The position numbers and the translations under genes were made by a program. Under the pieces are notes generated by a model. That model worked only from the letters and a program-made list of their open reading frames with translations, was not told the DNA's origin and searched no databases. Of a DNA stretch of 64,000 nt, positions 50,884 through 57,585 are shown piece by piece (position 1 is the stretch's first letter; each line of letters begins with the position of its first letter). The stretch lies in contig CP043547.1 in NCBI GenBank assembly GCA_009664345.1, positions 1,240,001 through 1,304,000 of the forward strand, in the 5' to 3' direction. Source of the stretch: Planctomycetales bacterium 10988 (GTDB lineage Bacteria; Planctomycetota; Planctomycetia; Pirellulales; Pb10988).

Positions 50884-53448
50884 TTATTTCTTCTCGAAGG
50901 AAGAGAGATGCGCAAGCTCTTCGTCGGGAAGTGATTCGATGGGATCGCCGTTTTCATCCCAGAATTTCCAGGTGTCGACACGCTGGCCATTTTCAAAGGT
51001 TCCTTGAGCTTTCAGTCCACCATGGGGGTAATAGAAAGTCCATTTCCCATGGGGAGCATTTTCGCGGAAGGAACCGCGTTTCTCAATCTGCCCATCCGGA
51101 TGGAGAAAAAGCCATTGACCATGACGATTGCCATTGAGATAGGAACCGGATGACAGGATTTGGCCACTTTCATCCCAATAGCTCCAGTGGCCTTGCTCTT
51201 GATTCATTGTGTAGTGGCCTTCCCACCGCTTTTGCCCATCTTGAGCCCAGGCAATCCAGTGGCCATTGCGTTTGCCATCGAGTTGCAAGCCTTGGAGGGA
51301 CAGATCGCCTTCGACCAATTCCTTGGAAGTATTATTTGTCGAAGCGGCAGAAGGTTGCGAGGTGAGGAAGAAAAAGAGGCCCGTTCCGCCGAGAGCCAGC
51401 AGCACTAACAGACCTATCCCACCTACCATGAAATATTTGGCACGGGACTTTCGGCGTCGTTTCTTTTGCGAAGGAAGCGAACTGACGAGCGAACCCGACA
51501 TCTGCGAACCCCGCACATGCAACGAACGCGAACGTTCCGCAGCGACGGACATCGGATTCATGCCATCTTCCAGGCTGACCGATTCGTCCTCCGTGTAGGT
51601 TCCATATCCGTGGGACATGTCGTGGGATCGGTCGTTGTAGTCCTGACCCGTTTCATTGTAAGACAGATGCGAGGAGAAGTGCGAACGTTCTCCTGGATCG
51701 GTTGGTCGGACAGGGCGTCCTTGGAAAGACGCTCGAGGAGCAGGCCGATTCAAGTCCATTTGCGAACCGGACTCGGCAGTGTCGCCCCGTGGCTGATTTC
51801 CATCATTTTTATTGGTGATCGCACGAAGATCGACAGAGGAAGTTCGATAAGCTTCATCATGCAAAACGGTCGCAGCACCGCAATTTAAACATTTCGTCCA
51901 ACGCGCGGTGAAGGTCGATTGACACTTCGGGCAAGAAGCCTTGATGGTTGGATCAAGTGGTTTTTCAGGGGCCTCGGCCTCTTGCGACTGATTCCATTGA
52001 TTGTTTTTCGTCGAGGAACCAGCGGCTTCTTGGGTATTGTGCGTTTCTTGATTAGCCTTCCGAGGAATCCCGCCGGTGGGTGGAGGACTGATTGCCGGAT
52101 AATTCCCATTCCCAACTCGATAGGGATTGCCCATGTTGGCGATGGGATTATTGACGGTTCCACACTTTGGACATTTAAAACGATACATGTTGCGACCAAA
52201 GGCTGTGCCACAGGTACGGCAAATGATTTTGGAATCGCTGTCCTTGGGAGTATTTTGTTGATCGTTTAGCTTCTTGCGGGCGGTTCGCCCCATGGTCGTT
52301 GAAGTCCCTAGCCCGGCGAATGTATCAGAAGCACCTCGTCGCTTCCGCGAAAGGTCTTCTTCTTCCACAACCTTCTTGTGCGTGCTGAGCCAGTTTTCCA
52401 AGGCAGCCGCGACTTCTTTGGCCGTTTGATATCGCTCATCTTGCTTTTTGGCCATCATCTTTTGACAGATTTCAACCAAACCCGGAGGAGCATTTGGGCG
52501 ATCTTCGTAGATTGCCGGCGGCTCTTGCATTTGGTGCATGAGCATTCGCTGAGCCAACGAACCTCGGGGAAAGGGTGGATGCCCCGTCAAAAGAAAATAG
52601 AGCGTGCAACCAAGACTATAAATGTCGGCCCTTGCGTCGACCGTGTGGCTATCGAGCGCTTGTTCCGGGGCAAGATAATCGGCTGTCCCAAGAATATTAT
52701 CCGCGGAAGCCCGAGTGATAGAGCATTCTTCTTCGTGTTCCGTATCAGCGGAATGAAGACGCGCGATCCCCAGATCAAGGAGCTTGACGACTTTCTTGCG
52801 ATCAACAAGTAGATTGGCCGGTTTGATATCGCGGTGAATGAGATGATTTTCGTGGGCGTGGAAAAGCCCTTCCGCAGCTTGGCGAACAAAGTCAGCCGCC
52901 ATTTCAAACGGTAGCGGTCCACGTTCCTTGACCAGATGATGAAGGTCTTTCCCTTCCACATACTCCATCACCAGGAAGTAGACATCGCCATCACTATTGA
53001 AATCGTGGGCACGGACAATATTGGGATGATCGAGCGAAGCAATGGCCCGCGATTCCATCCGGAAGCGTTCAAGGAAGGCTTCGTCATCTTCTCCACTGAG
53101 CGAGAGGACTTTGATCGCCACCTGACGCCGCATCACGGTATGTTCGGCCAGGAAGACGCTGTTCATCCCCCCAGTGCCAAGGTGTTTTAAAAGCTTATAG
53201 CTACTAACAAAGAATCCCCGATGCCGACCCCCAAGCAGACGTTGAGCGCGACCCTCGACAATCATGCGATGTTGCCAAAGGGTAAGTAATCCCGATTCGA
53301 CGAGGGCTTCCGAGAGAAGATCAACATCGATCTTACTCGCATGCTCCATGTCGCGTAATTTTTGAAGGACTTTTTCCAGTTGTGCGCCGGTGACGAGTCG
53401 ATATTGCAGGATTTGCTCCTGATACGCTTCGACCGTCATCATGTGCAT
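50884..53448 (-). CDS. Ser/Thr protein kinase with zinc ribbons, TM helix and MORN-like repeats
   Basis: An 854-residue membrane kinase. An N-terminal module with LLTLWQHRMIVEGR (about 54-67) precedes the kinase domain. The kinase has GTGGMNSV (91-98), the ATP Lys113 in VAIKVL, HRDIKPAN (205-212) and DLG (225-227), so it appears active. Two CxxC...CxxC ribbons follow (C410/C413/C426/C429 and C506/C509/C520/C523). A TM helix (about 672-695) leads to five MORN_2-type repeats (about 722-840, with GHW, GQW and GKW). ATG 53448 has AAGGAG eight bases before it, better than ATG 53484. Confidence 0.92.
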   Translation of the reverse strand: MHMMTVEAYQEQILQYRLVTGAQLEKVLQKLRDMEHASKIDVDLLSEALVESGLLTLWQHRMIVEGRAQRLLGGRHRGFFVSSYKLLKHLGTGGMNSVFLAEHTVMRRQVAIKVLSLSGEDDEAFLERFRMESRAIASLDHPNIVRAHDFNSDGDVYFLVMEYVEGKDLHHLVKERGPLPFEMAADFVRQAAEGLFHAHENHLIHRDIKPANLLVDRKKVVKLLDLGIARLHSADTEHEEECSITRASADNILGTADYLAPEQALDSHTVDARADIYSLGCTLYFLLTGHPPFPRGSLAQRMLMHQMQEPPAIYEDRPNAPPGLVEICQKMMAKKQDERYQTAKEVAAALENWLSTHKKVVEEEDLSRKRRGASDTFAGLGTSTTMGRTARKKLNDQQNTPKDSDSKIICRTCGTAFGRNMYRFKCPKCGTVNNPIANMGNPYRVGNGNYPAISPPPTGGIPRKANQETHNTQEAAGSSTKNNQWNQSQEAEAPEKPLDPTIKASCPKCQSTFTARWTKCLNCGAATVLHDEAYRTSSVDLRAITNKNDGNQPRGDTAESGSQMDLNRPAPRASFQGRPVRPTDPGERSHFSSHLSYNETGQDYNDRSHDMSHGYGTYTEDESVSLEDGMNPMSVAAERSRSLHVRGSQMSGSLVSSLPSQKKRRRKSRAKYFMVGGIGLLVLLALGGTGLFFFLTSQPSAASTNNTSKELVEGDLSLQGLQLDGKRNGHWIAWAQDGQKRWEGHYTMNQEQGHWSYWDESGQILSSGSYLNGNRHGQWLFLHPDGQIEKRGSFRENAPHGKWTFYYPHGGLKAQGTFENGQRVDTWKFWDENGDPIESLPDEELAHLSSFEKK

Positions 53449-53715
53449 ACTGTAAGCTCCTTCAACTCCGAGAGAACCACTCATAAACCGTATGCCTCAA
53501 AATTCTTTTCCAAGAACCTAGGTTGTCTTTCTCGAAATTGCGGGGGGGATTCGCCTCTTCCTGACGAAACGAGGATAATGGATCTACGAATAATCTGGAA
53601 ATATAGATTAAAAAATGTCAGTTTTATTGAATATTTCGAATGATTGCCACAACCAATTACCTGTAAAGGACTTATGCACAACAGCTTCATAAATCCTTTG
53701 AAAAATGATTTCTGA

Positions 53716-53988
53716 CATTTTTCAATCCACCACGATATCCTGCTTAATCCTCAATTTGAGCAATCAAGGCAAGAGCAATCCACCTCTTTAGAGGTTCGTA
53801 GCAAAATTGAAAAGGTAATTGTAAATGACAAAGAAACTGTTCGTATCATACCAACGATTCCATTCTTCAACAAAGCAAATTTTGAGGAGGAGAGGAGATT
53901 TGCTTTTTGGGTGAAGAACGATTGTGCCAATAAAATGAATCGTCCGGTTGTCAATCAATTAATTATTAGAGTCTCTAACCATCGTTAG
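53716..53988 (+). pseudogene. Start-less open frame resembling a DUF2971-type C-terminus
   Basis: The frame is open from a TGA at 53713-53715 to a TAG at 53986-53988, 90 codons without a start near its beginning. It reads as real protein: EVRSKIEKVIVNDKETVRII, IPFFNKANFEEERRFAFW and NRPVVNQLIIRV. The 'KxxFEEERxF' pattern recalls DUF2971 proteins, but this is a weak match made by eye. The stop codon falls inside the neighbouring repeat element. The best reading is the end of a decayed gene; a chance open frame is possible. Confidence 0.35.
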
Positions 53989-54045
53989 CTTAGGCATTGA
54001 ATTCCAAGGTTGATCCGTCGGTAACGGAATTTAACCACTGGCTCT
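53968..54045 (-). repeat. Dispersed inverted-repeat element, degenerate copy
   Basis: Left end AGAGTCTCTAACCATCG and right end AATTTAACCACTGGCTCTC match the ends of the family in reverse orientation, and the length (about 78 bases) agrees. The interior keeps only a CCAAGGTT block, so confidence is limited. Confidence 0.4.
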
Positions 54046-54144
54046 CAATCTTTTCCTATTTTGGCGTAAAAGTTTCGATTTGCAAGTCAAATGAAATCGA
54101 TAATTATTATTTCTTGCCCACGAATTAAGAAATATTTTCCGAAT

Positions 54145-56577
54145 TTATTGTCGAATGTTCCTTAACCATTGGGAAGCATTCATTTTCCACAATCGAACGG
54201 TATTATCTGCTCCCCCCGAAAGGAGGGTCAAATTATTTGGGGAAAAAGCGATACTTGCGACCGCTTCACGGTGTCCAACAAAGGTTTCTACTTGTCGCGC
54301 GTCGACTGCATGCCAGATCTTGATCACATGATCTTCGCTCCCTGAGGCTATCCAGCGACCATTGGTGGTGACGGCGACCGTCGTAATTGGATGTTGGTGA
54401 GCCGCAACTCGACCGAGTAAAGTCCCTCGGTGCAAATCCCAAATGAAGAGACTTCCATCTTCTCCTCCTGAAACCGCTCGTGTCCCATCGGGTGAAAGAG
54501 CCAAACTCCAAATCGGAGCACGATGGCCTGCCAGAACTCTTAGTTCTTCACTACTCGAAAGTTCCCAAACCCGAACCGTATAGTCTTGAAGTTCATTACT
54601 TCCCCCCGCCAAGACAACAAAACTTCCATCAGGGGGAACCCCAATCGCACGAATCCAGTCGGAATGTTCCATCCACATGGCCATCCGAGATTCTTGCAAA
54701 TCCCAAATCCGTAGGGAACGATCCCGCCCCGCGGAAAGTAGATAATTGTCTTGAGGCATGAAACGGACATGAAAAATGGCATCTTCATGACCTTCCAAGT
54801 GACGAATCTGGCGTCCGGTTTCCAAGTCCCAAACGCGAACAACACGATCCCATCCCCCAGTAGCGGCAAATTTTCCATCGGCGGAGACCGAGACCGATTC
54901 GACACTCTCTTTATGTCCGATCAATTGCCGAATCTCACGGCCTTTCTCTAAATTCCATAATTGAACCGCATGTGTTCCTGCCGAGAGCGCCTGCTTCTCG
55001 CCAGGCAAGAAAGTTACGGATTGAATCCCTCCAGGGCGATCTCCTTTGCGTCGGCCCTTGAGCATAAACAGTTGATTTTCCGGAGTTTCCTCCTCCTTCT
55101 TCTCTTCCCCTTCTGGTTTCGAAGTCGTGGACGCAGTTACCACGGTTCGTTTTTTATCTTCATCAACGGGGAGAAGGTCAAACAGTTCTTCATCTCCGGA
55201 ACTAGAAGAACCGCTAGTGGAGGCAGCTGATTGATTCACCTTCGTAGTCGCTGGTTTGGCTTGAGCCGATTGGGTGCCCTTGTCGTCGTCTTGTAAAGTC
55301 AGCTCTTCCAAATCGAAGTCTTGTTTCGCTGTGCTGGGAGTTGCTTGCGGTTGGGCCTTTTTCTTACCATCGGCAGGAAGCGGCGGAGGCGAGATAGTTT
55401 CGGACTTTTCCTCCGGTTTTTGCAAAAGTTCTTCCGGCAAACTCTCTGTAATGACTGTTTTACGAGTTTCGAGAACTCTATCGCACGGAATATACACTCC
55501 ACCCGATCGAGGCCAGGCCGCCGGCCAAGCTTGCAGTGCCCAGATCAATTCTTCCGCACTTTCGTAACGATCTTGAGGGTCTCTGGCGAGTAACTTCGAT
55601 AAGATTTCAACAACCGGCTTCGGAAGGTCAGCGCGATGCTGATTCGCGGGAGGGGCATCCTTTCGTGCTCTTGCTAAAAGCTTTTGCAGTTTATTTTTCC
55701 CGGTGAATGGCAAACGTTTTGTCAGAAGATGATAAGCAACACATCCCAGACTAAACAGATCGCTTCTGCCATCCACATTCTCCGGGTCTTCGGCTTGTTC
55801 CGGAGAGAGATAATCGATCGTTCCTTCGGGCACCACCATCTCCTCCTCGGAATCTTCATCTTCAACCGTCGAAGTTTTTGAAGGATCGAGAAAGAGTGTC
55901 GAACTTCCAAACGCTAACTTCGCTTGTTGCTTTTGTTCACCTAAGAGAAAGATGCGACTTGGGCTAATTCCACGATGCACGAAGCCTTCTTGATGAGCAT
56001 ACGCCAGCCCTTCCGCAATCGTTCTTAGCCAAGGACCGAGCCACTCAACCTCGATTTTCTCCGATTCCAACTCCTCTGCTAAAGAACCCTCAGGAAAATA
56101 TTCCTTCACCAACCATCGCTTTTGAGAGGTAGTTTCTTCATGCAGAGAGTAAATCGCAGCGATCGAGGGATGCCGTAATTGGAACAACCTGCTCCAGAAA
56201 GCTCGCGATTCCTCGGCCTTCTCGGCTTCTTCAGGATTTGCATCTTGTGAAGCGGAAGGCAAAACTTGAAGGATTACCTTACTTCGCAATGCCGCATGAT
56301 GGGCCAGGAAAGATTGATTCTCTTCTTCTTGTCCCAGTGGCTCCTTGAGAAGACATTCATTCCACCAAAAACTCCCTTTTCCCAAGACTAACCTTCGTCG
56401 CTGCCACGGGGTGATCCAATCGCGTTCCTCCAGCCAGAGCGCGAGGTCTCCCCGCTTCCAATCCTGGTTGGCATCGATTGCTTCATGTAATTCAGGGAGT
56501 TGTTCGGCAGAGAGAAGCTTCAACTTTTCGATACGCTGATAGAGGTCAGCAACCGATTCATGCGTTGGGTCAGTCAT
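54145..56577 (-). CDS. WD40-repeat protein with degenerate kinase domain (pseudokinase)
   Basis: An 810-residue protein. N-terminal module with ITPWQRRRLVLGKG as in the other kinase. The kinase-like domain (about 73-345) lacks all key residues: the ATP Lys is Gln104 (VILQVLP), the glycine loop is absent, HRD-K-N reads HRGISPSR (201-208), and DFG reads AFG (222-224), while YLSPEQA is kept. A Glu/Pro/Thr-rich linker (about 360-540) leads to seven WD40 repeats (about 540-805), one full propeller. No TM segment. It probably scaffolds or senses rather than phosphorylates. ATG 56577 is preferred to the upstream 56664. Confidence 0.9.
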   Translation of the reverse strand: MTDPTHESVADLYQRIEKLKLLSAEQLPELHEAIDANQDWKRGDLALWLEERDWITPWQRRRLVLGKGSFWWNECLLKEPLGQEEENQSFLAHHAALRSKVILQVLPSASQDANPEEAEKAEESRAFWSRLFQLRHPSIAAIYSLHEETTSQKRWLVKEYFPEGSLAEELESEKIEVEWLGPWLRTIAEGLAYAHQEGFVHRGISPSRIFLLGEQKQQAKLAFGSSTLFLDPSKTSTVEDEDSEEEMVVPEGTIDYLSPEQAEDPENVDGRSDLFSLGCVAYHLLTKRLPFTGKNKLQKLLARARKDAPPANQHRADLPKPVVEILSKLLARDPQDRYESAEELIWALQAWPAAWPRSGGVYIPCDRVLETRKTVITESLPEELLQKPEEKSETISPPPLPADGKKKAQPQATPSTAKQDFDLEELTLQDDDKGTQSAQAKPATTKVNQSAASTSGSSSSGDEELFDLLPVDEDKKRTVVTASTTSKPEGEEKKEEETPENQLFMLKGRRKGDRPGGIQSVTFLPGEKQALSAGTHAVQLWNLEKGREIRQLIGHKESVESVSVSADGKFAATGGWDRVVRVWDLETGRQIRHLEGHEDAIFHVRFMPQDNYLLSAGRDRSLRIWDLQESRMAMWMEHSDWIRAIGVPPDGSFVVLAGGSNELQDYTVRVWELSSSEELRVLAGHRAPIWSLALSPDGTRAVSGGEDGSLFIWDLHRGTLLGRVAAHQHPITTVAVTTNGRWIASGSEDHVIKIWHAVDARQVETFVGHREAVASIAFSPNNLTLLSGGADNTVRLWKMNASQWLRNIRQ

Positions 56578-56751
56578 GGAATCTAAGGGATTGGGAAAAT
56601 AGAGAAGGGACAAGGGTAAGCGTTTCGTTATAATGCGTTGGGAGTTTGCATCCCACCTGGACATTGAGCATAATCCATCCTCGCCAGGAATGGAATAAAT
56701 ATCAAAACCTCGATGAGAAAAAGCTTGGCAAACTTACTACCAGGGCATTTT

Positions 56752-56850: not shown

Positions 56851-57585
56851 ATGAATTCAGAATATTGGAACTCGCTCACCAGTCAATTTCCAACCACGGC
56901 CCCTACTTTTTGGGGAATCGTCATCGCCGCGGTGGCCACGGTGATTCTTTGGCATGTGCCAGGCGGCCGGTATTTACTCTACCCTTTTTCAATCCTCGCC
57001 ACTTGGTTTCATGAGATGGGACATGGTTTAACAGCCCTTTGCCTAGGGGGAAAATTTGAAGAACTCTATCTTTATCCAAATGGCTCAGGTATGGCGGTTT
57101 ACCGGATTCCGGCTAGCTGGGGAGCAATTCGCAACTCCCTCATTGCCGCTGGCGGTCCCTTGGCACCGAGTTTACTGGGGGCCTGTTTTTTCGTTTTGGC
57201 AAAAAAACCGGAAGTCGCCCAATGGGGTCTGTATCTTTTAGTAGGGATTTTAATCCTTTCAACCCTGCTGTGGGTTCGAACTCTCTTTGGTTGGATTGCA
57301 ATTCCACTGTGGGCAATCGCCTTAGGAGCGGTGGCGATTTATGCCCGGCCGGAAGTGCAAAGTTTTTGTTTACAATTTCTCGGAGTCCAAGCCTGTTTAA
57401 GTACTTTCTATCAATTCAATTATTTATTTACTTATCAAGCCGAAGTCGGCGGTAAAGTTCGACTATCTGACACAGGCATTATTTCGCATCATCTTTATGC
57501 TCCCTATTGGTTCTGGGGGATTCTGCTCAGTGCCATTAGCCTTGCCGTATTAGGGATCGGGCTTCACTGGAGTGTTTCTAAATAA
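56851..57585 (+). CDS. M50-like intramembrane metallopeptidase
   Basis: A 244-residue polytopic protein. The zinc motif is WFHEMGHGLTALCLGG (HExxH, about 52-56) inside a membrane segment, followed by about four further helices. Short M50B-type proteins of this size lack PDZ domains. The second motif expected in M50 (NPDG-like) is not clear here, so peptidase activity is likely but not proven. ATG at 56851 has no strong ribosome site. It is convergent with the uridylyltransferase gene. Confidence 0.75.
   Translation: MNSEYWNSLTSQFPTTAPTFWGIVIAAVATVILWHVPGGRYLLYPFSILATWFHEMGHGLTALCLGGKFEELYLYPNGSGMAVYRIPASWGAIRNSLIAAGGPLAPSLLGACFFVLAKKPEVAQWGLYLLVGILILSTLLWVRTLFGWIAIPLWAIALGAVAIYARPEVQSFCLQFLGVQACLSTFYQFNYLFTYQAEVGGKVRLSDTGIISHHLYAPYWFWGILLSAISLAVLGIGLHWSVSK

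What the first reader, a model, noticed from the sequence alone, without database searches (positions are those of the whole stretch)
54145..56577. Kinase domain has lost its catalytic residues, fused to a WD40 propeller
ATP Lys to Gln, missing glycine loop, HRD/K/N read as HRGISPSR and DFG read as AFG. The fold markers (LAYAH, SPEQA, SDLFSLGCVAYHLL) remain. Bacterial pseudokinases of this form are little described. Its paralogue at 50884-53448 is intact.
Basis: partly seen in the sequence, partly recalled or inferred. Interest (0 to 1): 0.66.

Follow-up and report, generated by a model that had tools for sequence, protein, structure and literature searches.

The report
Dead kinase fused to WD40 propeller
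This bacterial gene makes a protein with the shape of a protein kinase but none of its three key catalytic residues, joined to a seven-bladed docking domain; it is probably a soluble scaffold or regulator, and about one in seven kinase domains in this bacterium is disabled in some way, so it is unusual rather than unique.

Summary
The gene lies on the minus strand at 54145-56577 (810 codons). Its protein has an N-terminal helical module, a kinase-fold domain (about 74-352), a low-complexity linker and a seven-bladed WD40 propeller (517-810). The kinase triad K/D/D reads Q/G/A: VAIK is VILQ, HRDxKxxN is HRGxSxxR, DFG is AFG, and the glycine loop is GQEEEN. The kinase fold is kept: AlphaFold pLDDT 81, best solved match PknB with Z 28.6. 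About 40 nearest kinases from relatives are all intact. No orthologue was found in samples of order, class and phylum, but this genome is the only one of its family held, so conservation could not be tested. It is not unique in kind: 12 of 82 kinase-fold domains in this genome lack at least one of K/D/D, much as reported for another planctomycete (85 of 610), and reviews describe bacterial families with all three motifs lost. The neighbouring kinase is intact but only the 12th closest in the genome. Most likely it is a soluble, non-catalytic scaffold or allosteric regulator of other kinases; partner and function are inferred. Interest is moderate: a new variant of a known kind.

The parts
54145..56577 (-). 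CDS, 810 aa pseudokinase-WD40 protein (P0001); a longer ATG start at 56664 is possible
   Evidence: full-length homology
56374..56577 (-). N-terminal helical module (residues 1-68) shared with active planctomycete kinases (W-Q-x-x-x-L-x-x-G motif)
   Evidence: alignment; helices 9-18, 27-36, 42-51, 57-65 in the model
55522..56358 (-). kinase-fold domain, residues about 74-352
   Evidence: Pfam PF00069 E 2.3e-26; model pLDDT 81; PknB Z 28.6
56296..56337 (-). degenerate glycine loop LGQEEENQSFLAHH (81-94)
56266..56277 (-). VAIK replaced by VILQ (101-104): Lys to Gln, Ala to Ile
55954..55977 (-). catalytic loop HRGISPSR (201-208) in place of HRDIKPxN
   Evidence: DNA motif found only here in 397 genomes of the order
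55906..55914 (-). DFG replaced by AFG (222-224)
55741..55806 (-). retained C-lobe markers SPEQA (258-262) and SDLFSLGC (272-279)
55030..55521 (-). charged, low-complexity linker (residues 353-516)
   Evidence: composition
54148..55029 (-). WD40 propeller, seven blades, residues 517-810
   Evidence: Pfam WD40; solved WD40 proteins E 1.8e-123; blades counted
50884..53484 (-). neighbouring intact kinase (P0002): kinase domain, zinc ribbons, one TM helix, MORN repeats; start at 53448 or 53484
53485..54144 (.). A+T-rich intergenic gap of about 660 bp between the two kinase-like genes; argues for separate transcription

Best explanation
The gene encodes a soluble, catalytically dead Hanks-type pseudokinase fused to a seven-bladed WD40 propeller. 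Shown: the three residues needed for phosphotransfer (K, HRD Asp, DFG Asp) are gone, the kinase fold is predicted to be intact, and there is no transmembrane helix. Inferred: the filled ATP site (Ala to Ile in VAIK, no glycine loop, no metal ligand) does not bind Mg-ATP; the kinase fold serves as a binding surface, docking on or allosterically modulating one or more of the roughly 70 intact kinase domains of the cell or holding their substrates; and the propeller supplies a second protein-binding face, so the protein acts as an adaptor. The partner is unknown.
For: Residue losses are read in alignment against about 40 relatives, all intact. The model has a full kinase fold with low-confidence residues 225-251 covering the activation loop and aligns to PknB over 256 residues, Z 28.6, rmsd 2.4. 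The 810-codon frame is open with normal codon-position composition across kinase, linker and propeller. The propeller has seven regular blades. The best hydropathy window is 0.93, so no TM helix. Precedents: EssB/YukC, a bacterial pseudokinase with all three motifs degraded and a degraded glycine loop, acts as a scaffold (PMC12599244); degenerate kinase domains sit beside intact ones in single proteins of this same genome.
Against: No orthologue is available, so selection on the domain cannot be shown. No partner is identified. The gap to the next kinase gene and the lack of an operon give no partner by context. WD40-fused kinases of the same genome are all intact, so the fusion does not in itself imply a scaffold.
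Confidence: 0.6

Rival explanations
1. The gene is an evolutionary relic: a duplicated kinase-WD40 gene that has lost function and is drifting, with the frame not yet broken.
For: No orthologue in about 1,000 planctomycete genomes sampled. Long branch (1.91 against a median of 0.55) in the kinase tree.
Against: An 810-codon frame without stops or frameshifts; normal codon-position composition; regular WD40 blades; a confident predicted fold. Divergence of 65% with no frame lesion is unlikely under neutral decay.
Confidence: 0.13
2. It is a dedicated regulator of the intact transmembrane kinase encoded next door (50884-53484), acting on it in trans.
For: Adjacent and on the same strand. In this genome dead domains occur fused behind live ones in three proteins (L085, L106, L111).
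Against: A 660 bp A+T-rich gap; P0002 ranks only 12th among own kinases by identity; no conserved pairing could be tested.
Confidence: 0.12
3. The kinase fold has a non-canonical activity (as SelO AMPylates or SidJ glutamylates) using other residues.
For: Precedents in bacterial pseudokinases (PMC12599244). E123, H201 and the C-lobe are retained.
Against: Unlike SelO and SidJ (table), the nucleotide-site Lys is lost, together with both Asp residues, the glycine loop and the VAIK Ala.
Confidence: 0.07
4. The protein still phosphorylates, with a lysine supplied from elsewhere, as in WNK kinases.
For: WNK3 is among the fold matches, as all kinases are.
Against: A shifted lysine would not restore the missing HRD and DFG Asp residues.
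Confidence: 0.03

Closest known systems
Kinase-WD40 fusion proteins of bacteria (PkwA of Thermomonospora curvata; planctomycete STKs with C-terminal WD40)
   Same: N-terminal Hanks kinase fold, C-terminal WD40 propeller (PkwA WD40 5yzv is among the best solved matches; PMC6113231, PMC11032199)
   Different: The planctomycete STKs surveyed keep K/D/D by selection, and 70-80% are membrane proteins with WD40 mostly periplasmic; P0001 lacks K/D/D and any TM helix. Six WD40-fused kinases of the same genome keep K/D/D.
EssB/YukC pseudokinase
   Same: All three catalytic motifs and the glycine loop degraded; non-catalytic scaffold (PMC12599244)
   Different: EssB/YukC is a T7SSb membrane protein with an attenuated activation loop; P0001 is soluble and WD40-fused.
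ActPs1, ActPs2, ActPs3, GLW and CP1 bacterial pseudokinase families
   Same: Loss of ATP-, catalytic- and metal-binding motifs in a PknB-like fold (PMC12599244)
   Different: Those whose distribution I read are described mainly from Actinobacteria (ActPs1) or cyanobacteria and proteobacteria (CP1), with other partner domains (PQQ, COG3899, PAS); the review mentions neither WD40 nor Planctomycetes.
Active PknB-type Ser/Thr kinases with the planctomycete N-terminal module (e.g. P0002)
   Same: N-terminal helical module and C-lobe; up to 36% identity over the full module and kinase domain
   Different: They keep VAIK, HRD or HCD, and DFG-type motifs.

Membership tests
Hanks-type (eukaryotic-like) kinase fold | bilobal kinase fold, significant Pkinase match | tested here: met
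   PF00069 E 2.3e-26, 93.2 bits over cut-off 31.7; PknB Z 28.6 over 256 residues
Active Hanks-type Ser/Thr kinase | K (VAIK), D1 (HRD), D2 (DFG) present | tested here: not met
   K/D/D reads Q/G/A
Pseudokinase with all three catalytic motifs degraded | substitutions at all three canonical residues in a kinase fold | tested here: met
Pseudokinase with all three catalytic motifs degraded | no nucleotide or cation binding | not testable with these tools
   needs thermal shift or ITC; only inferred from VILQ, GQEEEN and AFG
WD40 seven-bladed propeller | seven WD repeats closing a ring | tested here: met
   seven repeats at 517-810; PF00400 and other propeller models
GLW pseudokinases | GLW in place of HRD, TM region after the kinase domain | tested here: not met
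   HRG present, no TM helix
CP1 pseudokinases | linked COG3899 domain | tested here: not met
   only kinase and WD40-type matches in the list shown
ActPs1, ActPs2, ActPs3 pseudokinases | family-specific residue constraints | not tested
   the family alignments are not held here
Conserved pseudokinase family (orthologues with the same substitutions) | orthologues keep the losses | tested here: inconclusive
   no orthologue found, but its taxonomic family is represented by this genome alone

The most novel reading that the evidence does not exclude
The protein is a soluble hub of a planctomycete pseudokinome. A WD40-armed dead kinase docks on several active kinases that share its N-terminal module and directs them to substrates, working alongside the other degenerate kinase domains of this genome, including a 2603-residue protein with six kinase-fold domains of which four are degenerate.
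Probability: 0.15. Interest if true: 0.6.

Novelty: new variant of a known kind. Interest (0 to 1): 0.33.

Why it matters
Planctomycetes carry very large kinase repertoires whose wiring is unknown, and a recent survey keeps only domains with K/D/D, discarding about one in seven in its largest kinome. A soluble pseudokinase-WD40 protein with every catalytic residue gone is a clean case for testing whether bacteria use dead kinases as scaffolds or allosteric regulators of live ones, as eukaryotes do.

Tried and rejected
Plus-strand reading of the stated coordinates: no gene. Orthologue searches: two peptide-pattern scans of 84,980 species returned no planctomycete relative; the seven loci from the second scan match only 24-28 residues, and six of them are ordinary kinases of other phyla with an HAD or HSD-type catalytic loop. 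Protein searches in about 300 order, 400 class and 340 phylum genomes gave no match above 39% identity, and those read in detail were all intact kinases. Synteny through the neighbouring gene at 56851-57585 failed because that gene is itself nearly unique. Consistent 950-980 aa hits in one family of the class, which might have been orthologues, proved to be active kinases with a TM helix and another C-terminal domain, not WD40. The kinase tree joins P0001 to other degenerate domains (82/76), but these are long branches with odd composition, so I do not count it as kinship. PADLOC hits (PD-T4-6, mad6, PglW) are generic kinase matches and not evidence of defence.

Full report
CHECK OF THE OBSERVATION. 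The stated coordinates hold a gene on the minus strand; the plus strand there is full of stops while the reverse strand gives an open frame of 810 codons ending at 54145, or 839 if the upstream ATG at 56664 is used. Pfam finds a protein kinase domain (PF00069, E 2.3e-26) and a string of WD40 models. Aligned with the neighbouring kinase and about 40 relatives, the glycine loop LGxGGMGxV is LGQEEENQS, VAIK is VILQ (residues 101-104), HRDIKPxN is HRGISPSR (201-208) and DFG is AFG (222-224); SPEQA and SDLFSLGC remain. Two additions: the VAIK alanine, which lines the adenine pocket in active kinases (established knowledge), is isoleucine; and the alpha-C glutamate (E123) appears kept. One correction: the beta1-beta2 hairpin and the first glycine are still there.

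THE FOLD. An AlphaFold2 model of residues 1-370 built on a 16-row alignment has mean pLDDT 80.8, with four N-terminal helices, a five-stranded N-lobe with a long alpha-C (115-132) and a complete helical C-lobe; residues 225-251 after AFG are low confidence. Its best solved matches are mycobacterial and staphylococcal PknB kinase domains: Foldseek E 9e-20; VIA-align Z 28.6, rmsd 2.4, 256 residues, 28% identity. The propeller has seven regular repeats from 517 to 810 and matches solved WD40 proteins, including that of the kinase PkwA. No stretch is hydrophobic enough for a membrane helix, whereas the neighbour P0002 has one.

IS IT A REAL GENE? The frame is unbroken, and GC by codon position in the kinase part (0.61, 0.41, 0.47), linker and propeller shows the same coding pattern as neighbouring genes. 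Five independent motif changes without a frame lesion are not a sequencing artefact. I could not test selection directly, because no orthologue was found: none in a peptide scan of one genome per species, none in protein searches of the order, class and phylum samples, and the DNA motif for HRGI-S-P-S-R-I occurs in this genome alone out of 397 of the order. This genome is the only held member of its taxonomic family, so the gene could be conserved in near relatives that are not held.

HOW UNUSUAL IS IT HERE? A profile built from the active relatives was used to align all kinase-fold domains of the genome. Counting domains split by inserts as one, there are 82: 70 keep K, D and D, and 12 (15%) lack at least one. 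All three are lost in P0001 (Q/G/A), L134 (Q/E/L) and the first domain of L135 (T/A/N). Several degenerate domains sit in the same polypeptide as an intact one (L085, L106, L111, L135, L138). WD40-fused kinases of the same genome (kinase domains in L074, L121, L123, L124, L126, L130) all keep K/D/D, and three of them form their own clade (100/100), so P0001 is the exception among WD40 fusions and looks like an independent fusion. In Ca. Uabimicrobium, 525 of 610 putative kinases keep K/D/D (PMC11032199), so 14% do not: the proportion here is ordinary. The neighbouring kinase P0002 is intact but is only the 12th closest own kinase domain (31%), and is separated by an A+T-rich gap of about 660 bp.

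MECHANISM. Shown: all three catalytic residues absent, fold kept (predicted), no membrane helix, propeller present. Inferred: no Mg-ATP binding, use of the kinase fold as a docking or allosteric surface for active kinases or their substrates, and use of the propeller as a second binding face. The best precedent in bacteria is EssB/YukC, a triple-degraded pseudokinase that acts as a scaffold (PMC12599244). I give this 0.6. Relic (0.13), dedicated partner of P0002 (0.12), non-canonical catalysis (0.07) and retained phosphotransfer (0.03) are the rivals; the last two are disfavoured because the nucleotide site itself is altered at every key point.

RELATION TO THE KNOWN. Bacterial pseudokinases with all three motifs degraded are called relatively common, with named families (ActPs1-3, GLW, CP1), mostly of unknown function (PMC12599244). 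That review mentions neither WD40 nor Planctomycetes. Kinase-WD40 fusions are well known in Planctomycetes and elsewhere, but the planctomycete survey analyses those with K/D/D (PMC11032199). I found no paper describing the combination, in an open-access library only. It is filed as a pseudokinase by sequence; it fails the tested features of GLW and CP1, and ActPs membership was not tested. Verdict: a real, new variant of a known kind, of moderate interest.

Noticed in passing
own genome C1:5416464-5424300 (locus L138), outside the window: A 2603-residue frame holds six kinase-fold domains in tandem. Domains 1-4 each lack one or more of K/D/D and domains 5-6 are intact. A search with domains 1-3 found no full-length counterpart in 147 genomes of the order.
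   Followed up: partly
own genome L085, L106, L111 (C1:6484800, 4212600, 5741000): Proteins with an intact kinase domain followed by a second, degenerate one. The second domains of L106 and L111 are sisters (100/97), with HLN and HLG for HRD: a live-dead pair reminiscent of the two kinase domains of JAKs, in the other order.
   Followed up: partly
own genome L134 (C1:3965700-3967700) and L137 (C1:4067000-4069100): Two more mostly dead kinases with a planctomycete-type N-terminal region: L134 (Q/E/L, with a probable TM helix) and L137 (442 aa frame, HRRLVPEH, LLGFG, VAIK kept).
   Followed up: partly
own genome L135 (C1:4102600-4105400): A protein with an N-terminal region resembling a nuclease-related (NERD-like) domain and two kinase folds, the first dead and the second apparently live; it looks like PglW of BREX (recalled resemblance, not tested).
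   Followed up: no
window 50884-53484: P0002 combines an intact kinase domain, zinc-ribbon-like cysteine pairs, one TM helix and C-terminal MORN_2 repeats, which would place the MORN repeats outside the cytoplasm.
   Followed up: no
window 56851-57585: A small membrane protein with an HEMGH motif (M50-like peptidase by eye) that has almost no relatives in 98 genomes of the order (one weak match).
   Followed up: no
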